A DNA stretch of 64,000 nt from Paludibacteraceae bacterium (GTDB lineage Bacteria; Bacteroidota; Bacteroidia; Bacteroidales; Paludibacteraceae): positions 191,510 to 255,509 of the forward strand of contig JAEERP010000003.1 in the NCBI GenBank assembly GCA_016285885.1, in the 5' to 3' direction. The first letter of the stretch is position 1; each line of letters opens with the position of its first letter. Shown here in pieces: positions 42,829 through 64,000 of this stretch. Under the pieces are notes generated by a model. The model was not told the origin of the DNA. It made no database searches and was given only the letters and a program-made list of their open reading frames with translations. A program made the translations under genes and the position numbers.

Positions 42829-43836
42829 TCATTCATCAAAAAACACCACCTTCCAATCTTTAGGGACTCTGTTTACATCAAACACTATGGAAAGATCTGA
42901 CGAGCAGACGAAAGTGCCGAAGTCGCTGACGCCGGAGAGCCACAAAAAAGTCTCCAAACGTTCTTTTCTTACGCCATCTCTCCACCTCTCGCCGTGATCC
43001 TCGGCCCACCAATCGATAAAAGCCACCTTCACATAGGCGAGGTTAGAACAGCCCTCAAACATATGGGCGTAGCATTCATCCGCCAACATCGTGGCGGGGA
43101 GGGCGGGCGCCTCCGTCATGCTGACACAGCGGAAGAACATCCCATTATAGCAATATGGGGCTAACCGGGTGGCGGGAAGAGTAGGTGCATGCACCAAGCG
43201 TCGGCAGTGGAGGAACATATCCTCGTAGCATCTTTCCGCCAATGCGGTGGAGGGCAAAGAAGAGACCTGCATCAAGTTGTTGCAATAACAGAACATGCCT
43301 TGGTAGCAACCCTCAGCCATCACAGTGGCGGGAAGAAGAGGCATTCGTCTCAGGCTGGAACACTTACGGAACATCCTGCTGTAACAATATGCGGACAATG
43401 TGGTGGCGGGAAGCTCGGGGGCTTGCTGTAGGCTGGAGCATCTTTCGAACAAACCATAAAAACAATAATCGTTCGGTATCGTCTGGATATCCTTTGCGCC
43501 ATCGATCAAGCTCATCACACTACCGCTGGCATAAATGGGACCAGACATGGCGAAATGTGTGTAGCTCTTCTCGCCTCGGGAGAATCCATCCGGGTTCTCT
43601 CCCTTCAACAAGGCTTTGTCACCCATCTTCTTCAGCCTGACACGCTTTCCAACTTCACAAACGTTCCAACTCTCTCCTCCATCCAATGAATATTGCACAT
43701 CGGGCCCGTCTGCACCTTTCCTGATAATCCAAAACGAAGCACCGTCCTCCCCTGCCGTGAAAGTGAGGTAGTTGGCGGCGGAAGCGGAACAGAAGAGGCA
43801 TAGCAGCATCAAAAGGAGTGTGTTTCTCTTTAACAT
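42829..43836 (-). CDS. BspA/LRR_5-like 26-residue repeat surface protein, one module
   Basis: The 335-aa protein has a signal peptide (MLKRNTLLLMLLCLFCSASAA). A head domain follows (NYLTFTAGEDGASF...VQYSLDGGESWNVC...MSGPIYASGSVMSLIDG). Five 26-residue repeats follow, of the kind CSSLQQAPELPATTLSAYCYSRMF, and then the cap domain, which is degenerate (GVSDFGTFVCSSD...RVPKDWKVVF). No C-terminal sorting domain follows. It is the smallest of six paralogues here. Its promoter (43862-43891) is shared with the 507-codon paralogue. Surface location and adhesion are inferred from the relation to BspA-like repeats. Confidence 0.88.
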   Translation of the reverse strand: MLKRNTLLLMLLCLFCSASAANYLTFTAGEDGASFWIIRKGADGPDVQYSLDGGESWNVCEVGKRVRLKKMGDKALLKGENPDGFSRGEKSYTHFAMSGPIYASGSVMSLIDGAKDIQTIPNDYCFYGLFERCSSLQQAPELPATTLSAYCYSRMFRKCSSLRRMPLLPATVMAEGCYQGMFCYCNNLMQVSSLPSTALAERCYEDMFLHCRRLVHAPTLPATRLAPYCYNGMFFRCVSMTEAPALPATMLADECYAHMFEGCSNLAYVKVAFIDWWAEDHGERWRDGVRKERLETFLWLSGVSDFGTFVCSSDLSIVFDVNRVPKDWKVVFFDE

Positions 43837-43861
43837 AAGTATTTAGATTTATGAATCTGTG

Positions 43862-43891
43862 CAAAAATAATGAAGGGCGTGGAAAAACAAA
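43862..43891 (-). promoter_or_regulatory. Promoter of the single-module repeat gene
   Basis: On the minus strand TTTG (43888-43891), an 18-bp spacer and TATTTTTG (43862-43869) match the Bacteroidetes consensus. The sequence around it is duplicated at 50699-50729. Confidence 0.7.
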
Positions 43892-43900
43892 AATGATAAA

Positions 43901-43958
43901 TTGACTTCGTCGAACTAACGTTTCATAATTGACTTCGTCGAACTAACGTTTCAAAATT
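43901..43958 (+). repeat. Intergenic element, copies 3 and 4 in tandem
   Basis: Two copies of the 30-bp TTGACTTCGTCGAACTAACG element overlap by two bases (43901-43930 and 43929-43958), as if one had been inserted at the end of the other. Confidence 0.85.
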
Positions 43959-44134
43959 CTTAATTCTTAATTATCATGTATCGCCCTTTCAGGGCTCGGT
44001 GTCCAAAACCCGTTCGTCATCAGGGGTTTACACCCCTGCCTGGGGGATGTCGCCCCGCTGGGGCTAGGGGGTGCGTAGCGTGAAAAGAGACGCACTTCCC
44101 TTAACTCTTAATTCATAATTCAAAATTCATAATT

Positions 44135-44163
44135 AAAAAAGGGGCATGCAAACCGCACGCCCC
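44135..44163 (-). terminator. Terminator of the 1380-aa repeat-protein gene
   Basis: On the minus strand GGGGCGTGCGGTTTGCATGCCCC followed by TTTTTT. Near-identical hairpins lie at 50831-50858 and 53838-53868, downstream of paralogous genes. Confidence 0.8.
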
Positions 44164-44172
44164 AACTCTTAA

Positions 44173-44322
44173 TTGACTTCATCGAACTATCGTTTCTTAA
44201 TTACCCTAGGGCGTTGCCCCAGGCTATATATGTTTCGCCCCTTCAGGGCTGGGATATACGCAACATGCAAGGATACGCGCGTCCCGCCCTAATTGACTTC
44301 GTCGAACTGACGTTTCTTAATT
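44173..44322. repeat. Repeat block: TTGACTTC element, GGGCGTTGCCCC element, TTGACTTCG element
   Basis: Copies of the 30-bp element at 44173-44202 and 44293-44322 flank the GGGCGTTGCCCC element (44204-44250) and its tail. The last copy overlaps the end of the gene and provides its stop codon region (TAA at 44317-44319). The whole block is repeated at 50875-51031. Confidence 0.85.
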
Positions 44323-47300
44323 CATAATTTTCACGCTCTTCGTTTCCGTCTTAACAACGTACGTTCCCTTGTCAGGCAAAACGAAGCGGACGGTCTCATT
44401 CTCCCTGCCCTGTGCGCTACGCAGCAGTTTGCCGTTGAGGTCATAGACCTCGATGCGGCCCATAGCGCCACGTACGAAGATGGAGTGATCTTCCGTCCAG
44501 ACGGAGCAGGACGATGCGGTGACATTCTCCGCCCCCGATTTGCTGAATTGGACCACCTCCCATCCTTCAGGTATTCTACTCACACCATACTCTATATTCA
44601 ACTCATCCGGGCAGATGAAGGTGCCGGTAGGGGCGACATTATATACCCAAGATTCCATGGACCCCGCGAACATAATACAATCACAATCGCTTATATTATC
44701 GCCCATATAGCTGTCCCATCGGGTAAAATTGACCTTGATTTTAGAGAGACTGGTGCATCCAATGAACATCTCCGTATAGCTATCTTCGGCACCTTCAACA
44801 AGGATTTCCGGCGCCTCCGTCAGACTGGTACAACCAGAGAACATTCCCCTATAACACCCGTAGGCCATCCCCGTGGCAGGAAGTTCCGGTGCTTGCGTCA
44901 GGCTGGTGCAACCGGAGAACATGTGGCTGTAGCAATTTCCACTCAGTATGGTGGCAGGAAGGGCGGGCGCCTCCGTCAGGCTGGTGCAACCAGAGAACAT
45001 ATACTCATAGCAGTTATAGTCCACCTCCGTGGAAGGAAGGGCGGGCGCTTGCGTCAGGCTGGTGCAACCATCGAACATGTGGACGTAGCAAGCTTCACGC
45101 ATTCGGATAGCGGGAAGTACGGGTGCCTGCGTCAAGTTGGTGCAGCCAAAGAACATATACCCATAACATCCATCGGCCAACTCCATGGAAGGAAGGGCGG
45201 GCGCTTGCGTCAGACTGGTGCAACCAGCGAACATGTGGTCGCAGCAACCACTCACCAACTCAGTGGAAGGAAGGGCGGGCGCCTCCGTCAAGCTAGTGCA
45301 GTCAGAGAACATATACTCATAACATTTTTCGGCCAACTTCGTGGCAGGAAGTTTCGGCGCTTGCGTCAGGCCGGTGCAACCCGCAAACATGTGGTCGTAG
45401 CAGGTCCTACCCAATTGGGTGGCAGGGAGGGCGGGCGCCTCCGTCAAGCTGGTGCAACCAGAGAACATATACTCATAACATCTTTCGGCCAAATCCGTGG
45501 CACGAAGGACAGGCGCTTGCGTCAGGCTGGTACAACCGGCGAACATGTGGCTGTAGCAAGCTTCACTCAGTTGGAGGGCAGGAAGCGCAGGCGCTTGCGT
45601 CAAGCTGGTGCAGCCAGAGAACATATACTCATAACATCTTTCGGCCAAATCCGTGGCACGAAGAGCAGGCGCTTGCGTCAAACTGGTGCAGCCAGAGAAC
45701 ATAGACCCATAACATCCATAGTCCAACTCCTTGGCAGGAAGGACAGGCGCTTGCGTCAGGCTGATGCAGCCGTCAAACATGTGCTCGTAGCAAAAATGAT
45801 TCATATGAGTGGCAGGAAGTTCGGGCGCTTGCGTCAAGCTGGTACAATTACGGAACATATATCCATAACATCCATAGTCCAAATCCGTGGCAGGAAGGGC
45901 GGGCGCTTGCGTCAGGCTGGTACAACTATCAAACATTTGCTTGTAACATTCGATGGCAATGCTGGTGGCGGGGAGAACCGGCGCTTGCGTCAGCCCGGTG
46001 CAACCACGGAACATGCCAGCGTAGCAATCTGTCGCCAACTTCGTGGCAGGGAGCTCGGGCGCCTGCGTCAGACCAGTGCAACCGGAGAACATATACATGT
46101 AACATCCGTGTTCAAGATCTGTGACAGGGAGAACAGGCGCCTGCGTCAGACCGGTGCAACCACGGAACATGCCAGCGTAGCATTCTATCTCCAACTTCGT
46201 GGCAGGGAGCTCGGGTGTCTCCGTCAGACCAGTGCAACCGGAGAACATAAATTCGTAGCATCCAGTTTCCAATTCGGTGACGGAGAGCGTTGGTGCCTTT
46301 TTCAGGCCGGTACAACCCTCAAACATGCCGGAATAGCATCTCTCCGCCAGTTGGGTGGCAGGGAGCTCGGGCGCTTGCGTCAATCCAGTACAACCCTTAA
46401 ACAAACCTCGGAAGCAATAAATGGCGGAGATCGTCTTGCTTTTTCCTGTCCCGTCGATAAGGCTCATCACGCTTCCGCTGGCGGCAATAGAGCCCTTCAT
46501 GATAAAACGGGTATAGTCGTCCCGGTATTCATCGGATCTCTCCCAAAGGCCTTTAGGGTTTACGCCTTTCAACAGAACCTTATCGCCCTTCTTTTCAAGT
46601 GCGACATACGAGTTGTTTTCGAGAGGAGTCCATGTCTGGCCATCATCAGAAGAGAAGAAAATGCTATGTTTGCTAGTTGATGTTGTGATGCCGAAGGCGG
46701 AGTTATCCTCTTCGGCGGTGAAGGTGAGGTAGTTGGCCGGTGCATCTTCGTCAACGACATAATTAACCTTCCAACCCGCAGGTATCCTATCCTTGCCAAA
46801 TTCCTCAGCCAATGCTTCCGGGCAAAGGAAAGTGCCTGAGGAGTCGACATCGACGACCCAATCGCCCGTTCCCGACCATTGGGAAAAGTTGACCTCTATT
46901 TTGGACAAATTGGTACAACCGGAGAAGATCTCCGAGTAACACCCGGCCGACAGATTCGTCGCAGAGAGGATAGGCGCCTTCTCCAGGCTGGTGCAACCGG
47001 CGAACAGACGTTTAAAGCAATATTCGTTCGGGATCGTCTTGCTGTTTCCTGTCCCGTCGATGAGGCTCATCACGCTTCCGCTGGCAGAGACATCACCCGT
47101 CATGACGAAGTAGGTATAGCTATTCTCATGGCTGAATCCCTCTGGGTTCAATCCCTTCAACATAATCTTCTGATGTTTCAATTCGATGTCCCTCCCCTCT
47201 CTGAGTTGGCTCCATGTCATACCGTTATTCAAAGAGTAACTGATGTCAGGTTTATTATCACCCACGTTTACGTAACTGATGGTGCATCCATAGCTTCCGC

Positions 47301-48459
47301 TGAAGGTGAGGCAATTGATCAGCGCCTCCTCCCCATCGGTATACTTCACCGTCCAGCCAACCGGTATCTTGTCCCTTCCGAATTCCAGCTCTACCCCTTT
47401 CTCGCAGATAAACGTGCCGGTAGGAGCAACACCTGCAACCCAATCATCCGCGTTCCACCATTGAGTGGTCCGAGCGAGGTTAGCCTCTATCCGAGACAGT
47501 CTCACACAACCTGAGAACATCCCCGCATAAGAATTTCCTGCCAACTCGGAGGCGGGAAGCACAGGCGATTCGGTTAGGCTGGCACACCCATTGAACATAT
47601 TGGAATAACACGCTTCGGCCAAAAGGGTGGCAGGAAGAGCAGGAGCCTTAGCCAAACTAGCGCAACCATAGAACATCCCTTTATAGCAACTATTGGCCAA
47701 CATTATGGCAGGAAGTTCCTCCGGTGCTTCGGTCAGACTAGTACAACCATAGAACATATCCTGATAGCATCTTTCGGATATCTCCGTGGCGGGCAGTTCG
47801 GGCGCCTTCGTCAAAGCGGTGCAACCGGCGAACATTATCCTGTAACAGTCGTTGGCCAATTGTGTGGCGGGAAGTTCCGGTGCTTTAGCCAGACTGGTAC
47901 AATTTGAGAACATCGACGAGTAGCAGCCTTCGGCCAACTGCGTGGCGGGAAGAGCAGGGGCCTCGGTCAGACGAGTACAGCCTGAAAACATTTCCCTATA
48001 ACAATCTTCTTTGGTCAACTTCGTGGCGGGGAGCTCCGGCGCTTTGGTCAAACTGGTACAATCCAAGAAGATTCCACGGAAATTGACCGCTTCTGGCTTC
48101 ACGTCCTCTTCCGTCTCGCTTATCAAACTCAGCACACTACCGCTGGCGGCGATGGAACCTGTCATGAGGAAACGGAAAACGCCCAACTCCGGAACAACTC
48201 CATTAGGATTGTTGCCCTTTAGCAATACCTTGTCACCTTTCTTTGCCAAAACCACCGTGTCACGATAATATACAAGATCTTTCCATGTCTGTCCGTCATC
48301 CAAAGAGTATTGGATATTCACATGAGAATCATCCATAACGTCCTCGTATATTCTAAAGGACGAACTATCCTCCTCGGCCGTAAAGGTGAGGTAATTGGCC
48401 GCAAATACGGTACAATACGCACACAATAACGCAATAATTGAAGTAATCTTCTTTCCCAT
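44317..48459 (-). CDS. Three-module 26-residue repeat surface protein with T9SS-like tail
   Basis: ATG 48459 (MGKKITSIIALLCAYCTVFAA) is preferred over 48465; the product has 1380 aa. There are three modules. Module 1 has seven repeats, module 2 has one, and module 3 has 21 repeats of the GCTSLTQAPELPAT-x5-CY-x2-MF type. Each module starts with a head (NYLTFTAEEDSSSF, NCLTFSGSYG, NYLTFTAEEDNSAF) containing YSLDDGQTW and SIAASGSVMSLI, and ends with a cap (APTGTFICP...RIPEGW or equivalent). The last ~65 residues (CSVWTEDHSIFVRG...IEVYDLNGKLLRS...GTYVVKTETKSVKIMN) match a T9SS-type sorting domain. The repeats have two conserved Cys each. From about repeat 7 of module 3 on, YMF and HMF alternate, showing a 156-bp amplification unit. 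Confidence 0.92.
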   Translation of the reverse strand: MGKKITSIIALLCAYCTVFAANYLTFTAEEDSSSFRIYEDVMDDSHVNIQYSLDDGQTWKDLVYYRDTVVLAKKGDKVLLKGNNPNGVVPELGVFRFLMTGSIAASGSVLSLISETEEDVKPEAVNFRGIFLDCTSLTKAPELPATKLTKEDCYREMFSGCTRLTEAPALPATQLAEGCYSSMFSNCTSLAKAPELPATQLANDCYRIMFAGCTALTKAPELPATEISERCYQDMFYGCTSLTEAPEELPAIMLANSCYKGMFYGCASLAKAPALPATLLAEACYSNMFNGCASLTESPVLPASELAGNSYAGMFSGCVRLSRIEANLARTTQWWNADDWVAGVAPTGTFICEKGVELEFGRDKIPVGWTVKYTDGEEALINCLTFSGSYGCTISYVNVGDNKPDISYSLNNGMTWSQLREGRDIELKHQKIMLKGLNPEGFSHENSYTYFVMTGDVSASGSVMSLIDGTGNSKTIPNEYCFKRLFAGCTSLEKAPILSATNLSAGCYSEIFSGCTNLSKIEVNFSQWSGTGDWVVDVDSSGTFLCPEALAEEFGKDRIPAGWKVNYVVDEDAPANYLTFTAEEDNSAFGITTSTSKHSIFFSSDDGQTWTPLENNSYVALEKKGDKVLLKGVNPKGLWERSDEYRDDYTRFIMKGSIAASGSVMSLIDGTGKSKTISAIYCFRGLFKGCTGLTQAPELPATQLAERCYSGMFEGCTGLKKAPTLSVTELETGCYEFMFSGCTGLTETPELPATKLEIECYAGMFRGCTGLTQAPVLPVTDLEHGCYMYMFSGCTGLTQAPELPATKLATDCYAGMFRGCTGLTQAPVLPATSIAIECYKQMFDSCTSLTQAPALPATDLDYGCYGYMFRNCTSLTQAPELPATHMNHFCYEHMFDGCISLTQAPVLPAKELDYGCYGSMFSGCTSLTQAPALRATDLAERCYEYMFSGCTSLTQAPALPALQLSEACYSHMFAGCTSLTQAPVLRATDLAERCYEYMFSGCTSLTEAPALPATQLGRTCYDHMFAGCTGLTQAPKLPATKLAEKCYEYMFSDCTSLTEAPALPSTELVSGCCDHMFAGCTSLTQAPALPSMELADGCYGYMFFGCTNLTQAPVLPAIRMREACYVHMFDGCTSLTQAPALPSTEVDYNCYEYMFSGCTSLTEAPALPATILSGNCYSHMFSGCTSLTQAPELPATGMAYGCYRGMFSGCTSLTEAPEILVEGAEDSYTEMFIGCTSLSKIKVNFTRWDSYMGDNISDCDCIMFAGSMESWVYNVAPTGTFICPDELNIEYGVSRIPEGWEVVQFSKSGAENVTASSCSVWTEDHSIFVRGAMGRIEVYDLNGKLLRSAQGRENETVRFVLPDKGTYVVKTETKSVKIMN

Positions 48460-48699
48460 AGGCATTAAAATTTAATCTAAAACATTTATTTACAAAGAAG
48501 AGTTAATCCGACATCCATTTGTTGTTCTATATATCACCCTTATAAAAACCAACGTCGAACATTTACCCTTCCGCAAATATAATAAAAAACAATTGGATTG
48601 ATGGTTTTCGATAAAAATAACTGCGAATATGATTCTACCAAGAGTAGCACACCCGCAACCCAACTCTGTTTCCCCTTATACTTCACAAGATCCAATCGA

Positions 48700-49092
48700 T
48701 CATATCAGAATACTTTTAGCCAAAAAACAAGGGAATAACAAGAAAAAAAATTGTGAGATAAATATTGCGACAAATAAACAAAGCGCCTTTGCCTTTGACA
48801 TCTTATTAAAGTTATAGAAATAAGCTTGTATTGTGCTATCTTTAATCGCCAATACTTTCCAAAGTAAGATCAATAGCATGATTATCAATAAAATAAAGCA
48901 TGCTTTGTAAAACGTGTCTATCGAGTCCAAAATCAATGAAAGCGCAATAGCCGGAATGAAAGAAAAAGCCAAAGCGAGGTATATAGCCACAAAACCTTCC
49001 ACTCTATACATGGGAGAATCCATTTTGTCTCCGAGGAATAGAAATTTTGGTGCCGATCCAACAAACAAAAGGGAAACGATTGTTTTTTCCAT
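48700..49092 (-). CDS. Hypothetical small membrane protein
   Basis: The 130-aa product has three or four hydrophobic helices (FVAIYLALAFSFIPAIALSLIL, ACFILLIIMLLILLWKVLAI, LCLFVAIFISQFFFLLFPCFLA) with a short acidic loop. It matches no family I know. It is the only gene in the repeat-protein cluster that is not of that family and is AT-rich. The coding status is likely but not certain. Confidence 0.6.
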   Translation of the reverse strand: MEKTIVSLLFVGSAPKFLFLGDKMDSPMYRVEGFVAIYLALAFSFIPAIALSLILDSIDTFYKACFILLIIMLLILLWKVLAIKDSTIQAYFYNFNKMSKAKALCLFVAIFISQFFFLLFPCFLAKSILI

Positions 49093-49108
49093 ACAGCAAG
49101 ATAATTTT

Positions 49109-49132
49109 GAAACTTTAGTTCAACGTAGTCAA
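49109..49132 (-). repeat. Intergenic element, inverted and degenerate copy
   Basis: The minus strand reads TTGACTACGTTGAACTAAAG, matching the TTGACTACGTCGAACTAACG element at 18 of 20 positions. It is the only copy of the 12 in inverse orientation, yet like others it abuts the stop codon of a repeat-protein gene. Confidence 0.7.
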
Positions 49133-49136
49133 TTAA

Positions 49137-50594
49137 TTATTTTTTTGCGCGTTCCACTTTCCAATTCTCGGGTATCTTGTTGTCGCTGAATTCCTTCGGA
49201 AGGACTTTGGGGCAGATGAATGTGCCGTTAGGGGAGATACCGGAGAGCCAACCCTCTGTGTTCCAGTTTCTTGCATCATCCCCATTACCGAATTGCATGC
49301 CCCAGTCCGTGAAATTCACCGTGATGGAGGATAGTTTAGCGCAGTGGGAGAACATCTCCATGTAGCAACCCTTCACCAGCTTGGGAGCGGGCAGAATGGG
49401 CGCTTGGGATAGGTTGGCGCAATCGACGAACATACCTTTGTAGCAGTCCGTGGCCAGCCTTGTGGCGGGTAGTTCAGGCGCCTGGGTCAGGTTGGTGCAG
49501 TAGGAGAACATGCCGGCATAACACTTCTCGGTCAGCGACGTGGCAGGCAGGGCGGGTGCCTGCGTCAGACTGATGCACTTGGAAAACATATGTTCATAGC
49601 ACTCCATCGCCAAGCCTGTAGCGGGGAGCTCGGGCGCTTGCGTCAGATTGAGGCAAAGGGCGAACATCGCCTCGTAGCATCCGCCGGACAACTCCGTGGC
49701 GGGCAGTGCGGGCGCTTGTTTCAAACCGATACAATTATAGAACATCTCATGGTAACAAGCCAATGCCAACGACTTGGCGGGGAGCTCTGGGGCCTGCGTC
49801 AGGTTGAGGCAGGAGGAAAACATTCCTCGGTAGCAGGCCATCGCCAACTTCGTGGCAGGTAGTTCCGGCGCCTGGGTCAGGCTGGTACAACTGTCGAACA
49901 TTTGGGCATAGCACTCCTCAGCCAATTGCGTGGCGGGCAGTGCGGGCGCTTGCGTCAGGTGGGTGCAGCCAGCGAACATGCTGCGGCAGCAATCGGTGGC
50001 CAATATCGTGGCGGAGAGCGCGGGCGCCTGGGTCAGGTTGGCGCACTTGGCGAACATCTCGTAGTAGCATCCATTCGCCAGCCTCAGGGCAGGCAAGGCA
50101 GGGGCTTGGGTAAGGCCCGTGCAATCATAGAACATGTGCGAATAGCAATTCGTGGTGAGACCCGTGGCGGGCAGTTCGGGCGCCTGCGTCAGGCTGGCGC
50201 ACCTCTCGAACAGTTTGCAGAAGCAGTAATCGTTCGGGATCACCTTGTTCTCTCCCTTCCCATCGATGAGGCTCATCACGCTACCACTGGCGGCGATGGA
50301 ACCAGTCATGACGAAACGCATGTAGTTGTACCAATCTTTGGAGATGCCCAAAGGGTTATTTCCCTTCAATAGGATCTTGTCTCCCTTTCCCATGGTGATC
50401 ACATCACCTTCCGCGAGAAAGGTCCATCGTTTCCCTCCATCCATGGAGATGTGCAGGTCCGGGTTACAATCACCCTTGCATACGATTTCGAAGGAAGATC
50501 CGTTCTCTTCCGCGGTGAATGTGAGGAAGTTAGCGGCGGAGGCGGAGCAGAAGACGCATAGCAGCATCAAAAGAAGTGTGTTTTTCTTTAACAT
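49137..50594 (-). CDS. Single-module repeat surface protein without sorting tail
   Basis: ATG 50594 (MLKKNTLLLMLLCVFCSASAA, 485 aa) is preferred over the upstream 50660, which has no signal peptide; the signal is almost identical to that of the 335-aa paralogue. The head (NFLTFTAEENGSSF...LHISMDGGKRWTFL...TGSIAASGSVMSLIDGKGENK) is followed by 11 repeats (GCTHLTQAPALPATQLAEECYAQMF type) and a cap (GISPNGTFICPKVLPKEFSDNKIPENWKVERAKK). It lacks a T9SS-type C-terminal domain. How it would be held at the surface is unclear; it may be secreted to the periplasm only, or represent a single cassette. Confidence 0.9.
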   Translation of the reverse strand: MLKKNTLLLMLLCVFCSASAANFLTFTAEENGSSFEIVCKGDCNPDLHISMDGGKRWTFLAEGDVITMGKGDKILLKGNNPLGISKDWYNYMRFVMTGSIAASGSVMSLIDGKGENKVIPNDYCFCKLFERCASLTQAPELPATGLTTNCYSHMFYDCTGLTQAPALPALRLANGCYYEMFAKCANLTQAPALSATILATDCCRSMFAGCTHLTQAPALPATQLAEECYAQMFDSCTSLTQAPELPATKLAMACYRGMFSSCLNLTQAPELPAKSLALACYHEMFYNCIGLKQAPALPATELSGGCYEAMFALCLNLTQAPELPATGLAMECYEHMFSKCISLTQAPALPATSLTEKCYAGMFSYCTNLTQAPELPATRLATDCYKGMFVDCANLSQAPILPAPKLVKGCYMEMFSHCAKLSSITVNFTDWGMQFGNGDDARNWNTEGWLSGISPNGTFICPKVLPKEFSDNKIPENWKVERAKK

Positions 50595-50698
50595 GAGCCT
50601 AGAATAATCTAAAAAGTTGTCCTCGCCAGAGAGTATTGTCTGAAGGGAATGGCTGTACAACGCCTAAAAACATCTCCGACGGATTTTTTGAATCTGTG

Positions 50699-50729
50699 CA
50701 AAAATAATGAAAAGGGTAAGAAAAACAAA
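50699..50729 (-). promoter_or_regulatory. Promoter of the 485-aa repeat gene
   Basis: On the minus strand TTTG (50726-50729), a 19-bp spacer and TATTTTTG (50699-50706) match the Bacteroidetes consensus. It is closely similar to the promoter at 43862-43891, so promoter and gene were duplicated together. Confidence 0.7.
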
Positions 50730-50778
50730 AATGATTGTGCGCATCGTGTAGGGATACACACTCCCCCCCGATTCAAAA

Positions 50779-51031
50779 TTGACTACGTCGAACTATCGTT
50801 TCATAATTCATAATTCATAATTCATAATTCAAAAAGGGGCATGCAAATCGCACGCCCCAACTCTTAACTATTAATTGACTACGTCGAACTATCATTTCTT
50901 AATTACCCTAGGGCGTTGCCCCAGGCTATATATGTTTCGCCCCTTCAGGGCTGGGATATACGCAACATGCAAGGATACGCACGTCCCTCCCCAATTCAAA
51001 ATTGACTACGTCGAACTATCGTTTCTTAATT
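50779..51031. repeat. Repeat block: three TTGACTACG elements and a GGGCGTTGCCCC element
   Basis: The 30-bp element occurs at 50779-50808, 50875-50904 and 51002-51031. The CCCTAGGGCGTTGCCCCAGG element is at 50906-50952. The last copy overlaps the stop codon (51026-51028) of the downstream-lying minus-strand gene. Extended TTCATAA tandem repeats follow the first copy. Confidence 0.85.
50831..50858 (-). terminator. Terminator of the 873-aa repeat-protein gene
   Basis: On the minus strand GGGGCGTGCGATTTGCATGCCCC followed by TTTTTG. It is nearly identical to the hairpin at 44135-44163. Confidence 0.8.
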
Positions 51032-53647: not shown

Positions 53648-53837
53648 AAGCCTTATTCGCAAGTTTTAATATATTTATAGCAAAGGATATATCCGAACAA
53701 AATGTGCTGCTCATTCTCCCCACGTAACACTTTCCCTAATCCCTTATCTTTTGCAAAATTAGTAAAAGTTCATTGAAATGTTGTGTGCGGCAAAAAAAAT
53801 AAATTCACCTCACATCAGCCACACACAAATACCCAAT

Positions 53838-56900: not shown

Positions 56901-59900
56901 TCCTTGGCAAGACGACAGGGTCCCCATACGAGGCGGTGAGTCGCTTCCATGTCCTACCATTGTCCACAGAATACTGAACATCTGCGGCATCCTCATACAA
57001 CTGGTGGCCAGTGAGATCAAATAAGTATCGGGACAAAGAGAAGGTGGAACTATCCTCCTCGGCGGTGAAGGTGAGGTAGTTGGCATTCTGCAACTCCTCC
57101 TCGATGTCTTCAATATACCTCACATCCCAACCCTCAGGTATCCTGCTTAGACCATATTCCTCGGCCAAGCTCTTCGAGCAGAAGAAGGTGCCGGTAGGGG
57201 CAACATTATATACCCAATACTTGGTTCCGGTCTCATCCCATTCGGTGAAATTCACCTCGATTTGGGAGAGTTTCGTGCAATAATAAAAGATATCGTCATA
57301 ACACTTATCTGCCAACTGGGAGGCAGGAAGAACTGGCGCTTGCGTCAGATTGGTGCATCTAGAGAACATAGATTCATAACAGCTTTCCGCCAGTTGGATG
57401 GCAGGCAATGCTGGCGCTTGCGTCAGATTGGTGCATCCATAGAACATAGATTCATAACAACCTTCCGCCAGTTGGGTGGCAGGAAGAACCGGCGCTTGCG
57501 TCAGGCCAGTGCATCCATAGAACATAGATTCATAACAGCCTGCCGCCAGTTGGGTGGCAGGAAGAACCGGCGCTTGCGTCAGGCCAGTGCATCCATAGAA
57601 CATACGCCTATAACAGTTTTCCGCCAATTGGGTGGCAGGAAGAACCGGTGCTTGCGTCAGGCTGGTGCATCCATCGAACATAAATGAATAACAGTCTGCC
57701 GCCAGTTGGGTGGCAGGAAGAACCGGCGCTTGCGTCAGGCCAGTGCATCCATAGAACATAGATGAGTAACAGCTTTCAGCCAGTTGGGTGGCAGGCAATG
57801 CTGGCGCTTCTGTCAGGCTGGTGCATTTATAGAACATATCCATATAACAATCTTTCTCCAGTTGGGTGGCAGGAAGCGCAGAGGCTTGTGTCAGTCCAGT
57901 GCATTCATTGAACATATTATAGTAGCAGCTTGGAGCTAACTCCACAGCAGGCAAAGCCGGTGCCTGGGTCAAGCTTTCGCATAACTGGAACATATGATCG
58001 TAGCAGTTCGGAGCTAAGTCCATGGCCGGCAATATCGGTGCCTCCGCCAGGCTGCTGCATCCATAGAACATGCGTTCGTAGCAGTTCGGATCCAACTCTG
58101 CGGCGGGCAGTTCCGGAGCTTGGGTCAGGCCAGTGCATCTCTCGAACATGTTTTTGTAGCAATATGGCGCCAAATCCGTGGCAGGCAGTGACGGCGCCTG
58201 GGTCAAGCCATCGCATCCAACGAACATACTCTCGTAGCAGTGTGATGCCAACTGGGTGGCAGGCAGTTCAGGGGCCTGCGTCAGCTCATCACAAAATTCG
58301 AACAGCTTGTAGAAACAGTAATTCCCAGGTATCGTCTTGCTGACACCTACACCATCCAATAGACTCATCACGCTTCCACTGGCGGCGAGATGACCAGACA
58401 TCCGAAAATAGAAGTTGTATCCATCTTTCCGGGAGAAATCACTATTGACTCCCCTCAACATCACCTTATCGCCTTTCTTCTCCAAGGAAATAGTTTCTGA
58501 ACTAGATCTATCGTAGGTCAATTGTTCCCATGTTTGTCCATTATCCAAGGAGTATTGGATGTCTGGCCAAGAATTCGACAGATTTTTATTATAAAAATCC
58601 ATGACATACCGGCCAAGGTAGATGTGAGATCTATCCTCCTCGGCGGTGAAGGTGAGGTAATTGGCTTTCGACTCTTTGACACTCACTCTCCATCCCTCAG
58701 GTATTCTGTCTATACCATATTCCTCAGCCAACTCTTTCGGGCAGATGAATGTACCCGTAGGAGCCACATTCCCGAGCCAACCTCCGGTCTCATTCCATTC
58801 GGTAAAATCCACCTCAACTTGGGAAAGATTAGCACATCCAAAGAACATCCTGAAGTAGCAATAATCTGCCAAGTTGATGGCGGGCAGCGACGGTGCCTCC
58901 TTCAGGCTGGTGCATCCTTCGAACATTCCTTGATAGCATGCCATACCGAGTTCCGTGGCAGGCAATGCCGGCGCTTGGGACAAGCTGGTACAACCAGAGA
59001 ACATCCTTTCGTAACACCCGTATGCCGTTTTCGTGGCAGGCAGTTCAGGGGCCTTCGTCAGAGCGGTGCATCCGGCGAACATCTCTTTGTAACAATCCGT
59101 ATTCAGTTCCGTGGCAGGCAGTTCAGGCGCCTGCGTCAGAGCGGTGCAACCATAGAATAGCCTGTAAAAGCAGAAAATAGGTATTGACTTACGGCTTCCC
59201 ACCTCATCCAATAAGCTCATCACACTTCCGCTGGCAGCGATGGAACCGGTCATCCTAAAGCTATAATAATCAATATCATTGTTAAAGGCTAGCGGATTAA
59301 AGTTTCTCAGCATTGCCTTGTCGCCTTTCTTTGCCAAAACGACAGTGGTCGAAGTGGTGAGTCGCTTCCACGTCTCCCCATTGTCCAAAGAGTACTCTAA
59401 AGTTTTTTCTATTCCAGGTTCATTGTTGAAATCCAAATAGTGCCGATCCCAGGAGAAAGTGGAACCATCCTCCTCGGCGGTGAAGGTGAGGTAATTGGTC
59501 TTCGCCACCACTTCCTCGCCGTCAACGATATACTTCGCCACCCAACCATCCGGTATTCTGCTTGGGCCATATTCCAAAGCGAGTTCCTTCGGGCAGATGA
59601 ATGTACCGTAAGGAGAGACTTTACGAACCCAGTTCAGGTGATATTTCTTCTTCCACTCGGTAAAGCTAACCTTGATCAGAGTAAGGAGCCCACAATTTTC
59701 GAACATCCGGAAATAGCACTCGCCATCCAAATACGTGGCTGGCAACGCTGGCGCCTCCCGCAAAGAATGGCAGTCAGAGAACATACCCTCATAGCACTTC
59801 CCTTTTAGTTCCGTGGCAGGGAGTTCAGGACCCTTCTTCAGACTAGTACATCCTTTGAACATCTCCATGTAGCACGACTCTTCCAGTTCCTTCGCAGGTA

Positions 59901-62900
59901 GACCCAATACCTCCACCAAACCGGTACAACCAGAGAACATTTCAGCGTAGCACGATTTTGCCAATTTCGTTGCGGGCAGTACCGGAACCTTCGTTAAACT
60001 GGTACACTCTTGGAACATGCTATTATAACACCCTTCAGCTAAGTTCGTGGCAGGCAGTGCCGGCATTTCCTTCAAGCTAGTGCAACTATCGAACATTACA
60101 TAGTAGCAATATCTTGCCAACTGAGTGGCAGGGAGTTCGGGAGCCTTCGTCAAGCCGGTGCATTTGCTGAACATTCCAGCGTAGCATTCTTCCGTCAACT
60201 GCGTAGCGGGCAGTGCAGGAGCTTCCGTCAGACTGGTGCAACCTTCGAACATCCAGGAGTAGCAATAATCTGCCAACTGAGTGGCAGGCAGCTCCGGAGC
60301 CTTCGCCAGCTTGGTGCAACCCTCGAACATTCCCAAGTAGCAATAATCTGCCAACTGAGTGGCGGGCAGTGCCGGAGCCTGTGTCAGCCCGGTGCATCCA
60401 TAGAACATCTGCTCGTAGCAATCACTCGCCACCTGAGTGGCGGGCAGTGCCGGAGCTTTCGTCAGCCCAGTGCATCCAAAGAACATCCTATAGTAGCAAT
60501 AGTATTCTATCTTAGTGGCAGGAAGTTCTGGGGCCTCCGTCAAACTGGTGCAACCTTCGAACATCCTGGAGTAGCACTCACCCTTTGCCACCGTGGCGGG
60601 TAACTTAGGGGCCTTCTTCAGTCGAGTACAACTGGAGAACATTCCCGCATAGCATGCCTCAGCTAATTCCGTGGCGGGGAGCTCAGGAGCTTGCGTCAGA
60701 CTAGGACAACCTGCGAACAGATTATAGAAGCAATAACTTCCTGGTATCACCTTAGTATCCCACGTGCCGTCCACTAGACTCATCACGCTTCCGCTGGCGG
60801 CGATGGAGCCAGTCATCGCGAAGGTACTGTAGTTGTCTTCGTATAGAGAGAATCCGCCAGGATTATTTCCCCTCAACAATGCCTTGTCACCTTTTTTCTC
60901 CAATATGACACTCTTCTCCGTAAGTTCCTGCCATGTTTGTCCATCATCCAGGGAGTACTCTATGTTTGGTTGTCCCTCCGGAGTATAGTATTCGTAGCCA
61001 TAATCCGTGACGACCCAATAAATCGAGAAGGAGGAGTAGTCCTCTTCAGCGGTGAAGGTGAGGTAATTGGCTCTCCCTTCTTTACCGTCCACTTCCCAGC
61101 CTTCAGGTATCCTATCGGTGCCATATTCCACCGCCAACGCTTTTGGACAGACAAATTTGCCCTTAGAAGCGACACCCTCGACCCAATCTTTCGACTCTCC
61201 AGACCATTCCGTGAAGAGCACCCTGATTTCTCTCAGATCCTGACAACCGCTAAACATCCTGGTGTAACATGAATCAGCCGTCGTTGTGGCAAATATCTCC
61301 GGAGAACGCCACAATTTGCTTCCTTGAAACATTCCCATGTAGCACCCCTCCGCCAACTGCTTGGCAGGAAGTGGAGAGGATACTCTAACACCACTATTCT
61401 TAAACATCTCCGCATAACAATAAGGAGCCAACTCCTCAGTGGATAATTCAGGAGAATACACATAAGGACAATCGCTGAACATACCCATGTAGCACGAATC
61501 GGCCAACTTAGTGGCGACGGCTTGACCAGAGACGTTATACAGATAATCGCATCCAGAGAACATCTCCTTATAGCATCTAGGAGCCATCTCCGTGGCATGA
61601 AGGCCACGGACCACACTTACCTCGCGACAATTAGCGAACATACGTTCATAACAACCTCTGGCCAACTTCTTTGCGGGAAGGTCTGGGAGTGAATAATGTT
61701 CATAGTCATACTCTGATTCCTCGACCAAGGAGTTGCATCCCTCGAACATTTCCGCATAACAAAATGGAGCCAGTTTCCTGGATGGTAGATTAGGCGTGTT
61801 ACTCAGCTGTACGCAATACTTGAACATTCCTCTGTAACATCCCTCCGTCATCTGCTTGGCGGGAAGTAGATTGAAATCCACCACTGCCAACGAGAAACTG
61901 CCATAAAACATTTCCCTATAGCACTCCTTGGTCAATGTGGTAGCAGGTAGTTCAGGCGAATTGTCAAGAGCATTGCATTCCGCGAATAATCTATAGAAAC
62001 AGTAATCATTCGGGATCGTCTTGCTTCGTCCCGTACCATCGATCAGGCTCATCACACTTCCACTCGCCTTGAGGTATGATGAGTAACCATTGCTCATGAA
62101 GAAGTGCGTGTAGCTGTCGAGGCTCTTGGAAAATCCATTCGGGTTGTTACCCTTCAACATCGCATAATCCCCTACCTTCCTCAAAAAGACCGTGTCACCG
62201 GCGTTGAGAAGAGTCCACGTCGCTCCACTGTCCAAGGAGTACTGTACGTCCGGTGCATTCCCCCCCTCGTTGACAATGCCAAAAAAGTTTTTTTCGCCAT
62301 ATCTCGCGGTGAAGGTGAGGTAGTTGTCCTCCTCTTCCTCTACCGGGTCTTCCAACGTTCCGTAATATTCTACTGTCCAACCATCTGGTATGGCATCCGC
62401 ACCATAGATCTCTTCCAAGCCTCTCGGGCAGATGAATGTACCAGTAGGGGCAACGTTAACCATCCAGTTGTCAGGCCTCCACCACTCGGAGAAGTGCACC
62501 TTGATGCTGGAGAGGTTGACACAGCCGTTAAACATTCCATGGAATGACGAACGCACGCTCGTCGCCCATATTTCCGGCGCCTGCGTCAAGCTGGTGCAAC
62601 CAGAGAACATATCCCTGTAGCAATTATCAGCCAAACTATATGCGTGCAAATCAAACGCCTTCGTCAAACTGGTACATCCGGAAAACATCCCATTGTAACA
62701 ATTATCAGCCAAACTATATGAGTGCAAATCCGGCGTCTGCGTCAAACTGGTACAACCAGAGAACATATCCTTATAACAATTATTAGACATAGTGTATGCG
62801 GGCAAATCCGGCGCCTTCGTCAAACTGGTACATCCATGGAACATCCCACTGTAACAATCATCAGCCAAACTGTAGGCGGGCAATTCAGGCGCTTGCGTCA

Positions 62901-63291
62901 AACTGGAACAACCCGCAAATAACTCGATGAACGGACCTGAATAGCTATGCTCGCCCGTGCCATCCATCAGACTCGAAATGTTACCACTCGCGGCGATGGA
63001 TCCGGTCATGAAAAACCGAGAGCGTGCGTATTTGAAGGAAAAACCATTTGGATTATCCCCCTTCAGAAATGCCTTGTCACCCACATTCTCCAAGATGACC
63101 GTGTCTCCAACAACAAGTGCATGCCATGTCTGCCCTTCATCCAAAGAGTATTGGGCATCGATATTGTTGGTTTTCTCTGCAAATCCAAATGAGGACCTCT
63201 CCTCCTCCGCCGTAAAAGTGAGGTAATTCGCCGCAAAAAGAGAACAATACGAACCCAGCAGCATAAGAAGTAATACGATTTTTTTCTTCAT
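53908..63291 (-). CDS. Giant eight-module 26-residue repeat surface protein
   Basis: ATG 63291 (MKKKIVLLLMLLGSYCSLFAA) is preferred over 63405, which gives 38 unlikely residues; the product has about 3127 aa. There are eight modules, each with a head (NYLTFTAEED...YSLDDGQTW...KKGDKALLKGNNPxGF...GSIAASGSVMSL), a repeat array and a cap (APTGTFICPKxLAEEYG...RIPEGW). The arrays have about 5, 9, 13, 4, 13, 7, 8 and 2 repeats, total about 61, of the form GCTSLTQAPELPATQLAxxCYxxMFY. Modules 1 and 2 are the most divergent; modules 5 to 8 are close copies. The repeats resemble BspA/LRR_5 solenoids with two conserved Cys per repeat. The tail (CVVWTEDRTILVRG...IEVYDLNGKLLRG...) is T9SS-like. Probable role is adhesion or substrate binding at the cell surface; this is inference. 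Confidence 0.93.
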   Translation of the reverse strand: MKKKIVLLLMLLGSYCSLFAANYLTFTAEEERSSFGFAEKTNNIDAQYSLDEGQTWHALVVGDTVILENVGDKAFLKGDNPNGFSFKYARSRFFMTGSIAASGNISSLMDGTGEHSYSGPFIELFAGCSSLTQAPELPAYSLADDCYSGMFHGCTSLTKAPDLPAYTMSNNCYKDMFSGCTSLTQTPDLHSYSLADNCYNGMFSGCTSLTKAFDLHAYSLADNCYRDMFSGCTSLTQAPEIWATSVRSSFHGMFNGCVNLSSIKVHFSEWWRPDNWMVNVAPTGTFICPRGLEEIYGADAIPDGWTVEYYGTLEDPVEEEEDNYLTFTARYGEKNFFGIVNEGGNAPDVQYSLDSGATWTLLNAGDTVFLRKVGDYAMLKGNNPNGFSKSLDSYTHFFMSNGYSSYLKASGSVMSLIDGTGRSKTIPNDYCFYRLFAECNALDNSPELPATTLTKECYREMFYGSFSLAVVDFNLLPAKQMTEGCYRGMFKYCVQLSNTPNLPSRKLAPFCYAEMFEGCNSLVEESEYDYEHYSLPDLPAKKLARGCYERMFANCREVSVVRGLHATEMAPRCYKEMFSGCDYLYNVSGQAVATKLADSCYMGMFSDCPYVYSPELSTEELAPYCYAEMFKNSGVRVSSPLPAKQLAEGCYMGMFQGSKLWRSPEIFATTTADSCYTRMFSGCQDLREIRVLFTEWSGESKDWVEGVASKGKFVCPKALAVEYGTDRIPEGWEVDGKEGRANYLTFTAEEDYSSFSIYWVVTDYGYEYYTPEGQPNIEYSLDDGQTWQELTEKSVILEKKGDKALLRGNNPGGFSLYEDNYSTFAMTGSIAASGSVMSLVDGTWDTKVIPGSYCFYNLFAGCPSLTQAPELPATELAEACYAGMFSSCTRLKKAPKLPATVAKGECYSRMFEGCTSLTEAPELPATKIEYYCYYRMFFGCTGLTKAPALPATQVASDCYEQMFYGCTGLTQAPALPATQLADYCYLGMFEGCTKLAKAPELPATQLADYCYSWMFEGCTSLTEAPALPATQLTEECYAGMFSKCTGLTKAPELPATQLARYCYYVMFDSCTSLKEMPALPATNLAEGCYNSMFQECTSLTKVPVLPATKLAKSCYAEMFSGCTGLVEVLGLPAKELEESCYMEMFKGCTSLKKGPELPATELKGKCYEGMFSDCHSLREAPALPATYLDGECYFRMFENCGLLTLIKVSFTEWKKKYHLNWVRKVSPYGTFICPKELALEYGPSRIPDGWVAKYIVDGEEVVAKTNYLTFTAEEDGSTFSWDRHYLDFNNEPGIEKTLEYSLDNGETWKRLTTSTTVVLAKKGDKAMLRNFNPLAFNNDIDYYSFRMTGSIAASGSVMSLLDEVGSRKSIPIFCFYRLFYGCTALTQAPELPATELNTDCYKEMFAGCTALTKAPELPATKTAYGCYERMFSGCTSLSQAPALPATELGMACYQGMFEGCTSLKEAPSLPAINLADYCYFRMFFGCANLSQVEVDFTEWNETGGWLGNVAPTGTFICPKELAEEYGIDRIPEGWRVSVKESKANYLTFTAEEDRSHIYLGRYVMDFYNKNLSNSWPDIQYSLDNGQTWEQLTYDRSSSETISLEKKGDKVMLRGVNSDFSRKDGYNFYFRMSGHLAASGSVMSLLDGVGVSKTIPGNYCFYKLFEFCDELTQAPELPATQLASHCYESMFVGCDGLTQAPSLPATDLAPYCYKNMFERCTGLTQAPELPAAELDPNCYERMFYGCSSLAEAPILPAMDLAPNCYDHMFQLCESLTQAPALPAVELAPSCYYNMFNECTGLTQASALPATQLEKDCYMDMFYKCTSLTEAPALPATQLAESCYSSMFYGCTGLTQAPVLPATQLAADCYSFMFDGCTSLTQAPVLPATQLAENCYRRMFYGCTGLTQAPVLPATQLAAGCYESMFYGCTGLTQAPVLPATQLAEGCYESMFYGCTNLTQAPALPAIQLAESCYESMFSRCTNLTQAPVLPASQLADKCYDDIFYYCTKLSQIEVNFTEWDETGTKYWVYNVAPTGTFFCSKSLAEEYGLSRIPEGWDVRYIEDIEEELQNANYLTFTAEEDSSTFSLSRYLFDLTGHQLYEDAADVQYSVDNGRTWKRLTASYGDPVVLPRKGDKAMLRGDNPRRFSFDYDYYTFMMTGSIAASGSVMSLLDMKGERKSVPQSCFFKLFEGCTALTQAPELPATELDLGCYTSMFRDCNRLTQAPALPAMVAPGECYFDMFAGCTSLKQAPALPATKLQLMCYASMFYGCTSLEKAPELPADTLAEACYEAMFVDCASLKEAPALPATKMEEACYEGMFDGCTSLTQAPALPATQLARYCYSDMFEDCTGLTQAPVLPATQLEEDCYRYMFSGCSNLSQIEVDFTEWKGTEEWVSNVAPTGIFFCPKSLSKEYDPSRIPEGWEVKYIEDIEEELQNANYLTFTAEEDGSTFSLARFNSDLSDDHIGDDVDVQYSLDNGRTWQQLTPSLATTVVLPKKGDKALLRGSNPSSFSSMDDYYTFVMTGSIAASGSVMSLLGETRESESVPQGCFYSLFYGCTALTQAPELPSTELGVGCYAGMFSGCTRLTQAPALPATVAISSCYSNMFAECTSLTQAPALPATELQSSCYENMFSGCTSLTQAPVLPATQLAKECYMGMFALCTSLTQAPVLPATQMSDYCYENMFYGCTSLTQAPVLPATQLAKGCYMGMFYGCTSLTQAPELPATQMVERCYTAMFSGCTGLTQAPLLPATQLAEKCYDYMFSGCSNLSYIKVGFTEWKETDKWVSSVAPTGTFIRPNRLREVYGESWIPEGWQVKYIGEEVPDANYLTFTAEEDSCTFSLARFQSDQSGSSFWDLIDVQFSLDNGGTWQRLSPSESTTVVLPKKGDKAILKGYNSWTFSSMDDYYTFVMSGSIAASGSVMSLLDGKGKSKSVPQECFYRLFYDCTALTQAPELPATELGEGCYAGMFSGCTGLTQAPVLPATQLAEDCYSSMFSGCASLSQIEVGFTEWKGTEEWVSNVAPTGTFICPKGLSEEYGESRIPVDWRVQFVGGEEETGTEYIVSSSCVVWTEDRTILVRGAEGRIEVYDLNGKLLRGAQGTEHETVRFVMPADGAYLVKTGKKVVKVVL
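57300..57860. repeat. Near-identical 78-bp tandem repeats in module 5 of the giant gene
   Basis: Consecutive 78-bp units share long identical stretches, for example the word AAGAACCGGCGC at 57484 and 57562, exactly 78 bp apart, with identical ends (CATCCATAGAACATAG). The protein repeats here differ at only a few positions, so they are a recent tandem amplification. Confidence 0.9.
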
Positions 63292-63688
63292 ATACCTGTT
63301 TATGTTTAATTTATAGCAAAATAATTCACATCTGTAGTGTAATAATCTATACGACAGAACCATACATCCTTGCCGAAAGAAAACATTTCCCGGCTCAGAC
63401 CACATAAGATTTGACTTATATTAGATTTGACGTTACACAAAAATCACGCAAAAGTATAAAAATTATTGATTTGCAAAGGGATTTGTCGAAAAAAATTACT
63501 AATATGCGTAATAATGTCAGATTTCAGAGATGTACGTATTAATCGATTGATTATTAGATAAATAAAAATTAACCAAGGAAAAGCGAAGGGGCAATTCCTG
63601 CCCTCCTCGCCTCTTTTAGCTTTGTCGTCCCTTATTGTGTCCAGTCTACAAAACGTGAATTCAAAATTGACTACGTCGAACTAACGTT
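63292..63688. other. 397-bp intergenic region upstream of the giant gene
   Basis: No gene. On the minus strand TACTTTTG (63449-63456) is a good -7 element with a TTTG 17 bp upstream of it (63474-63477), which would give a leader of about 150 nt. A short direct repeat (TTAGATTTGAC/TAAGATTTGAC) lies at 63405-63431. A copy of the 30-bp element (63667-63696) overlaps the end of the next gene. Confidence 0.55.
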
Positions 63689-63696
63689 TCAAAATT
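63667..63696 (+). repeat. Intergenic element, copy 12
   Basis: A copy of the TTGACTACGTCGAACTAACG element followed by TTCATAA tandem repeats. It overlaps the stop codon of the truncated gene at the window end. Confidence 0.85.
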
Positions 63697-64000
63697 CATA
63701 ATTCATAATTCTCACGCTCTTCTCTCCCATCCTAACAACATACGTTCCCTTGCCAGGCAATACGAAACGGACCGTCTCGTCGGCCGAGCCCTGTGCGCTA
63801 CGCAACAGTCTGCCGTTAAGGTCATAGACCTCGATGCGGCCCTCGGCGCCACGCACGAAGAGGGAGAGGTCTTCCGCCCAGATATCGCAATGCGCCGCAT
63901 CGACACTCTGCGTGGAGGTCCACTCATCAAGATCCACCATCTTCCAACCCTCCGGAATCCTGTTCTCACCATACTCCTCCGCCAATGATTTTGGGCAAAC
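63689..64000 (-). CDS. C-terminal end of another repeat surface protein (cut by window edge)
   Basis: The frame is open to the last base of the window. It begins in the cap domain (VCPKSLAEEYGENRIPEGWKMV), and continues with the T9SS-like tail (HCDIWAEDLSLFVRG...IEVYDLNGRLLRS...GTYVVRMGEKSVRIMNYEF). It is a paralogue of the proteins at 44317-48459 and 51026-53647; the repeat arrays and the start lie outside the window. Its final residues and stop are encoded by the TTCATAA part of the intergenic repeat. Confidence 0.88.
   Translation of the reverse strand, partial: VCPKSLAEEYGENRIPEGWKMVDLDEWTSTQSVDAAHCDIWAEDLSLFVRGAEGRIEVYDLNGRLLRSAQGSADETVRFVLPGKGTYVVRMGEKSVRIMNYEF

What the first reader, a model, noticed from the sequence alone, without database searches (positions are those of the whole stretch)
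42829..64000. Expanded family of multi-module 26-residue repeat surface proteins, up to eight modules in one chain
Six adjacent paralogues share one module: head domain, BspA/LRR_5-like array, cap domain. Module number (1, 3, 1, 3, 8) and repeat number per module (1 to 21) vary, with about 116 repeats in the five complete genes. The head (NYLTFTAEED...) and cap (PTGTFICP...RIPEGW) recur so regularly that they seem to be separate folded domains not covered by the repeat family alone. Serial whole-module duplication in one gene is a striking way to build a very long surface fibre. I recall similar repeats in uncharacterised Bacteroidales proteins, but not a described function.
Basis: partly seen in the sequence, partly recalled or inferred. 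Interest (0 to 1): 0.8.

Follow-up and report, generated by a model that had tools for sequence, protein, structure and literature searches.

The report
Modular leucine-rich repeat surface protein cluster
A Bacteroidales bacterium carries a cluster of proteins built from a repeated cassette (small beta domain, leucine-rich repeat coil, cap), most of them with a tag for export to the cell surface, and the number of cassettes and genes differs from that in a close relative, which points to a recombining set of surface binding proteins.

Summary
Five complete genes, and a sixth cut by the window edge (773 aa when completed from the genome), share a head / 26-residue-repeat array / cap module: 1, 3, 1, 3, 8 and 2 modules, 1 to 21 repeats each. 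One module is predicted confidently (pLDDT 90, pTM 0.89): all-beta head with one Asp-box, LRR-like solenoid, small beta cap. No Pfam family covers the head or cap. Four of six proteins end in a type IX secretion (T9SS) sorting domain (strong in two or three, weak in P0005) and the genome encodes SprA. The family is expanded genome-wide (79 head matches) and in the genus (12 of 16 genomes, own included), scarce in order and phylum samples, and recurs in ten viral contigs, three with phage structural genes within about 6 kb. Against a near relative (92-97% DNA identity), three genes are absent, one gene has one module instead of two, and one array has one more unit; two switch points lie in shared head or tag sequence. 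'Serial duplication in one gene' is only partly right: it fits modules 4-8 of the longest gene. Best reading: recombining T9SS-exported surface binding proteins, ligand unknown. A new variant of the BspA-type LRR kind.

The parts
42829..43836 (-). P0001, 335 aa, one module, signal peptide by eye, no T9SS tag found; absent from the near relative's locus
44317..48465 (-). P0002, 1382 aa, three modules (7, 1 and 21 repeats) and T9SS type A tag; the near relative's orthologue has one more 26-residue unit in module 1
49137..50660 (-). P0003, likely start 50594, one module (11 repeats), signal peptide by eye, no T9SS tag found; dN/dS 0.065 against the near relative
51026..53662 (-). P0004, likely start 53647, three modules (3, 2 and 5 repeats), T9SS type A tag over the NCBIfam cut-off
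53908..63405 (-). P0005, 3165 aa, likely start 63291, eight modules and a weak T9SS-like tag; absent from the near relative's locus
63689..64000 (-). C-terminal part of the sixth gene (P0006), with T9SS tag; the whole gene runs to extended coordinate 66010, 773 aa, two modules
58672..59496 (-). module 4 of P0005, the module used for structure prediction
59173..59496 (-). head of that module (all-beta, one Asp-box); 16 such heads in the five complete genes
58672..58833 (-). cap of that module; 16 such caps in the five complete genes
53911..54132 (-). C-terminal sorting domain of P0005; the predicted fold resembles solved T9SS sorting domains

Best explanation
A family of secreted, mostly T9SS-exported surface proteins. 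Each module is one unit: an all-beta head with an Asp-box leads into a 26-residue LRR_5-like solenoid, closed by a small beta cap. Modules are strung through weakly predicted linkers, and the C-terminal sorting domain takes the chain through the T9SS to the outer face of the outer membrane. There it presents many related but non-identical binding surfaces (adhesion to a polymer, a host or other cells). The repertoire changes by in-frame recombination between shared head starts, repeats and sorting-tag sequences, which adds or removes units, modules and genes. Shown: architecture, sorting-tag matches, SprA gene, purifying selection, switch points against one relative. Predicted: folds. Inferred: surface display, binding, recombination as the cause, direction of change.
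For: Modules. Module model pLDDT 90.4, pTM 0.89. Nearest solved LRR 4fs7 (Bacteroides ovatus): profile E 2.7e-7; Foldseek E 9e-7 with the two-module model, whose first eight hits are all LRR proteins or receptors. Sorting tag TIGR04183, cut-off 23 bits: protein scans P0004 27.4, P0006 23.6, P0002 21.7, P0005 16.7; genome search P0004 28.4, P0002 26.8, P0006 23.6, P0005 22.6. P0005's predicted tag resembles tags in solved T9SS complexes: 8gl8_D TMt 0.62, 8gl6_D TMt 0.67, probability 1.00, E 0.05 and 0.11. SprA 2403.8 bits, 0 of 14 control genomes. Selection. Switch points: the relative's gene 6 matches our gene 6 at 98/100 into the tag, then P0004's tag at 96/100 (79/100 to gene 6) and P0004's 3' flank at 95/95; at its start it has gene 6's signal peptide, then module 2 from the first head codons (96/100 against 56/100 to module 1); one 26-residue unit more, in frame, in P0002's orthologue. 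Viral side: ten contigs with heads, nine with caps; phage structural genes within about 6 kb in three; arrays match large phage families of unknown function (phrog_9915, P0002 E 1e-58); whole-module fold match to a phage collagen-repeat protein, E 5e-12, TMq 0.70.
Against: No ligand, binding pocket or expression evidence. P0001 and P0003 lack the tag. P0005's tag is under the cut-off in both searches. The single-module model has no PDB match at E<=0.001, and the 4fs7 superposition is poor (TMt 0.28, rmsd 11.9). The most variable repeat positions are 3, 4, 7, 22 and 24-26; positions 12-18 next to the predicted strand vary less, which is not what diversified recognition on the LRR inner face would give; exposure could not be computed. 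Module placing is not predicted. The relative is a metagenome assembly, so its switch points could be assembly chimaeras; and the DNA upstream of its gene 6 does not match ours.
Confidence: 0.6

Rival explanations
1. Surface coat or spacer: the chains mainly build a layer or stalk, and the modules are spacers without a specific ligand.
For: Positions 12-18 of the repeat are fairly conserved; chains are very long (3165 aa here, matches in frames up to 3947 aa elsewhere in the genome).
Against: Single-module proteins exist and P0003 is strongly conserved; modules recur in viral contigs; 123 of 123 units differ, though neutral drift could give that too.
Confidence: 0.2
2. Phage-related role: the module is a phage tail recognition module taken over by the bacterium (or the reverse), and its variation at the surface changes phage adsorption, as decoy or receptor.
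For: Ten IMG/VR loci encode heads, nine of them caps; phage structural genes within about 6 kb in three; top hit in the viral fold library is a phage collagen-repeat protein; phrog_9915 and phrog_22899 match the arrays.
Against: Of 50,697 phage records only two, of one Synechococcus phage, matched P0003 at E<=1e-5, over the array alone at 32.6% identity. No direction of transfer was tested. In four of the seven viral loci whose neighbours were scanned, no clear structural family appeared.
Confidence: 0.12
3. PARCEL-type mobile coding repeat: the 26-residue units spread as palindromic DNA elements and the protein is a by-product.
For: TIGR02167 (PARCEL repeat) matches P0002 at 40.8 bits, cut-off 30; long antisense open frames lie opposite the arrays, a feature the PARCEL paper mentions (PMC2996958 section 9).
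Against: The 78-base consensus unit is no more self-complementary than codon-shuffled versions (34 of 78 against mean 33.2; palindromes longer than one unit were not tested). P0001, P0003 and P0004 do not reach the cut-off and P0005 is not listed at E<=0.01. dN/dS well under 1.
Confidence: 0.03

Closest known systems
BspA-type LRR surface proteins (Pfam LRR_5, PF13306; BspA of Tannerella forsythia)
   Same: LRR_5-like solenoid with the [AM]F..C..L core (core of LRR_5 recalled); secreted. BspA is surface-expressed and binds fibronectin and fibrinogen (passage of PMC2843621). Nearest solved structure 4fs7.
   Different: 26-residue unit with two cysteines and the segment L..AP.LPAT; arrays divided into modules by a head and a cap that no Pfam family covers; LRR_5 matches weak or missing in several members.
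PARCEL / TIGR02167 repeat surface proteins
   Same: Similar repeat length, MF motif, tandem arrays in surface proteins; P0002 over the cut-off.
   Different: Dyad symmetry of the DNA unit not met; four of the five complete proteins are not over the cut-off; no FNQDIS..W.VSNV pattern as in the examples of PMC2996958 section 6.
T9SS cargo with type A C-terminal sorting domain (TIGR04183)
   Same: Tag on four of six proteins, three over the cut-off in the genome search; SprA in the genome.
   Different: P0001 and P0003 lack it; P0005's is under the cut-off.
Phage proteins with LRR or 'BspA family' names (BFVD top hit A0A8S5SD61)
   Same: Whole-module fold match, TMq 0.70, 26% identity over 239 columns.
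   Different: The bacterial genes are mostly multi-module and carry T9SS tags.
Asp-box proteins (sialidases, reelin, sortilin)
   Same: One Asp-box stretch of about 30 residues in the head.
   Different: One Asp-box per head and no propeller; the match does not extend over the head.

Membership tests
BspA-type LRR (LRR_5) | profile match over the curated cut-off | tested here: inconclusive
   P0002 98.5 and P0003 36.6 bits against 27.7; P0001 and P0004 not listed; P0005 24.9, or 29.6 with neighbours, in the genome search
BspA-type LRR (LRR_5) | LRR solenoid fold | tested here: inconclusive
   two-module model: first eight Foldseek hits are LRRs, best E 9e-7 but TMt 0.28; single-module model: no PDB match at E<=0.001; profile to 4fs7 E 2.7e-7
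BspA-type LRR (LRR_5) | adhesion to host proteins | not testable with these tools
   needs binding tests
PARCEL / TIGR02167 | profile match over the curated cut-off | tested here: inconclusive
   P0002 40.8 bits over 30; P0003 11.2 and P0004 13.1; P0001 none at E<=1; P0005 none at E<=0.01
PARCEL / TIGR02167 | dyad symmetry of the coding DNA | tested here: not met
   consensus unit 34 of 78 self-complementary, shuffles mean 33.2, 49.7% of 2000 at least as high; longer palindromes not tested
T9SS cargo, type A | C-terminal sorting domain (TIGR04183, 23 bits) | tested here: met
   P0004 and P0006 over it in both searches, P0002 in the genome search only; P0005 under it in both; none in P0001, P0003
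T9SS cargo, type A | T9SS machinery in the same genome | tested here: met
   SprA 2403.8 bits; other components were not searched
T9SS cargo, type A | secretion and surface anchoring | not testable with these tools
   needs proteomics or mutants
Sialidase-like Asp-box propeller | several Asp-boxes in a beta propeller | tested here: not met
   one Asp-box per head by pattern; match to sialidases covers about 30 residues; head model has eight strands

The most novel reading that the evidence does not exclude
A repertoire generator at the cell surface: a cassette (Asp-box head, Cys-rich LRR solenoid, cap) shared by bacterial T9SS proteins and phage tail proteins, recombined at fixed homologous seams (head start, repeat, export tag), so that populations keep changing the number and kind of displayed binding units, possibly under pressure from phages that carry the same cassette.
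Probability: 0.2. Interest if true: 0.75.

Novelty: new variant of a known kind. Interest (0 to 1): 0.5.

Why it matters
Here the unit of evolution appears to be a head-array-cap module with two parts that no Pfam family covers, with 79 head matches in one genome, and its seams can be read at base level between two near relatives. That makes concrete tests possible: measure module turnover with long reads, and assay one expressed module for a ligand. The same module in viral contigs gives a second way to look for the ligand.

Tried and rejected
PARCEL palindromic coding repeat: argued against by the symmetry test, although P0002 passes the profile cut-off. Sialidase-like propeller: one Asp-box only. 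A solved relative of the whole module: none at E<=0.001 among 754 weak Foldseek matches; many of the weak head matches are to cupin-like and FNIII or GOLD folds. Reading all modules of a gene as serial copies: only modules 4-8 of P0005 group, and not firmly (P0005 label 3 changes, shuffles as low in 43 of 500; P0002 and P0004 no better than shuffled). Assembly artefact in the window: unlikely for module number; possible for the relative's switch points. Moved copies in the near relative G001: P0004's longest match is 57% identical; the chimaeric tag region gives 64% and short array stretches up to 69%. P0001: 53% over nearly all of it, shorter stretches up to 60%. For P0005 only the head of module 3 was searched; its best-scoring G001 match is 56% identical, listed ones reach 65%, and that list was cut. 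Spread: head profile in the order 9 of 295 genomes, own included; of the 8 others four are strong (E below 1e-11) and four marginal (E 2e-4 to 7e-4); at most 16 candidates a genome were scored. P0003 in a phylum sample: 0 of 197 others at E<=1e-10, a coarse search in which only 7 of 115 candidates of our own genome were scored. A pattern scan of the genome collection gave seven loci in other Bacteroidales or Bacteroidetes metagenome records; all seven have heads, three with four heads in one frame. Viral neighbours: 20 proteins of seven of the ten loci were scanned. Structural families: L030, L032, L037. L031, L036 and L038 none; L035 only a marginal terminase small subunit match, E 4e-4, behind other families; L029, L033, L034 not scanned. 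Papers: nothing describing the head-array-cap module was seen in the listings. PMC2996958 was seen as abstract, passages, section 6 part 1 of 2 and section 9; PMC2843621 as passages; others as listings only. The library holds open-licence papers only.

Full report
What is there. On the minus strand, 42829-64000 holds five complete genes and the end of a sixth (translations). A 19.9-kb stretch of the same contig completes the sixth gene: 773 aa, up to window-extended 66010. Head and cap profiles built from the window's own modules find 1, 3, 1, 3, 8 and 2 modules. The unit reads C-Y-x-x-M-F-x-x-C-x-x-L-x-x-A-P-x-L-P-A-T-x-L-x-x-x. Of 123 MF..C units in six genes, Cys9 is in all because the pattern demands it, Cys1 is in 117, and no two units are the same. 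Three listed starts are probably too far upstream; signal-peptide-like starts lie at 50594, 53647 and 63291 (by eye).

Is it coding sequence. Against the near relative UBA1181 (locus L016; contig length and place say it is G001), dN/dS is 0.065 for P0003 and 0.34 for P0002. The longest exact direct repeat in the 9.5-kb gene is 65 bp.

What it is made of. Pfam gives LRR_5 over cut-off for P0002 and P0003 and none for P0001 and P0004; in the genome search P0005 reaches it only with neighbouring matches added. NCBIfam gives the T9SS type A tag in P0002 (21.7 bits), P0004 (27.4) and P0006 (23.6), cut-off 23, and TIGR02167 over cut-off in P0002 only; P0005 gives the tag at 16.7 bits and no TIGR02167 at E<=0.01. 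Heads scanned alone: 14 of 16 match the Asp-box model, best E 0.0037, and 10 of 16 Reelin subrepeat B, best E 0.0016; P0002 as a whole exceeds the Reelin subrepeat B cut-off, 33.1 against 27 bits. A head profile matches sialidases over about 30 residues, E 8e-6. Caps: one match in 16, E 0.02, to an unrelated family. The single-module model (17 sequences) has mean pLDDT 90.4 and pTM 0.89, with eight strands in the head and strands in the cap; that the head is a sandwich is my inference, as coordinates were not at hand. The two-module-plus-tag model (11 sequences) has pLDDT 82.6 and pTM 0.57, with stretches under 50 at 25-28, 383-387, 411-416 and 615-626. Its best solved match is the LRR protein 4fs7, E 9e-7 but TMt 0.28, and its tag resembles tags in solved T9SS complexes. 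The single module has no PDB match at E<=0.001.

Export. TIGR04183 has 103 matches at E<=0.01 in the genome; P0002, P0004 and the sixth gene are over the cut-off, P0005 is at 22.6 against 23 bits. SprA is present; other T9SS parts were not searched. P0001 and P0003 show no tag with NCBIfam or with the window-built profile. P0003-like genes of G003 and G005 do carry one, while those of G006 and G013 do not; orthology by gene order was not checked.

Spread. The head of P0005 module 3 finds 79 matches in the own genome, 59 in G001 and 0 to 66 in the other fourteen; 12 of 16 genus genomes, own included, have at least one at E<=1e-5. P0003 matches 15 of 16. Order sample: 9 of 295, own included, four of the others marginal. 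Phylum sample: 0 of 197 others, a coarse search. A pattern scan of named genomes gave seven loci in Bacteroidales or Bacteroidetes metagenome records; heads are in all seven, and L017, L019 and L021 have four in one frame, so multi-module chains are not unique to this genus.

Turnover. In G001 one flank (40418-41823) and P0002 and P0003 keep their order at 92-97% identity; P0001, P0004 and P0005 are missing and gene 6 has one module. Beyond gene 6 the DNA does not match at the threshold used. First switch: the relative's gene 6 matches our gene 6 at 98/100 in one block, P0004's tag at 96/100 (79/100 to gene 6) in the next, and P0004's 3' flank at 95/95. Second: gene 6's signal peptide is followed by module 2 from the first head codons (96/100 to module 2, 56/100 to module 1). 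P0002's orthologue has one more 26-residue unit in frame. This fits recombination between homologous seams. The direction is not settled, and the relative is a metagenome assembly. Counts at the stretch fetched: six genes and 18 modules here, three genes and five modules in G001, two genes and three modules in G006, and other sets in G013, G003 and G005; gene order outside was not compared for these four.

Tree. Among 34 modules P0005 4-8 form a group (88/91, not firm by the tool's mark), 7 and 8 being closest (70% identical over head and cap); 1-3, and the modules of P0002 and of P0004, do not group by gene. Of 31 inner branches 11 are firm and 11 open.

Viral side. A scan of viral contigs with the module alignment matched 19 stretches, of which 10 encode relatives. 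Heads are in all ten, some partial, and caps in nine; the tenth, L032, stops at its contig end. Structural genes within about 6 kb: tape measure in L030, minor tail and tail fibre in L032, portal in L037. The arrays match phrog_9915 and phrog_22899, families of unknown function. The top match in the viral fold library is a phage collagen-repeat protein, 239 columns, TMq 0.70. Of isolate phages only Synechococcus phage S-CBWM1 matched, over the array.

Mechanism and judgement. I read the family as T9SS-exported surface binding proteins whose repertoire changes by recombination at shared seams. Export is well supported for P0002, P0004 and P0006, less so for P0005, and open for P0001 and P0003. 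Binding is by analogy with BspA, which binds fibronectin and fibrinogen (passage of PMC2843621). A coat or spacer role and a phage-related role remain open.

Noticed in passing
window 40862, 42771, 43899, 43927, 44171, 50777, 50873, 51000, 53868, 63665 (21 bases each, minus strand): A short intergenic repeat (GATAGTTCGACGTAGTCAATT, up to two mismatches) occurs 42 times in the genome, ten of them in this window near the 3' ends of genes, against 0 for the reversed control. An 86-bp repeat is shared by the gaps after P0002 (44193) and P0004 (50895).
   Followed up: partly
window 44485-46680 (+): A 731-residue open frame runs antisense to the 21-repeat array of P0002; perhaps a by-product of codon use in the repeats.
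   Followed up: no
window 41839-42603 (+): Next to the cluster lies a 254-aa protein with an Imm33 immunity domain, E 2e-23; no toxin partner was looked for.
   Followed up: no
window 33007-35184 (-): A protein with GH30-like, Big_7 and CBM6 domains, a hint at polysaccharide use.
   Followed up: no
L029, L033, L034, L038: Module-bearing frames in these viral contigs look broken up under the standard code; a recoded stop is one possible reason. Not read through.
   Followed up: no
G000 contigs C42, C13, C14, C11 and others: The genome also holds many LRR_5 proteins with much stronger matches (up to 139 bits) than this family.
   Followed up: no
G013 C16:174343-176324 (L041): One member of the family may be split over two overlapping frames.
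   Followed up: no
G003 C4:34213-35877, G005 C41:36090-37775: P0003-like single-module genes carry a sorting tag here, unlike P0003, so the tag may have been lost or gained in the P0003 line.
   Followed up: no
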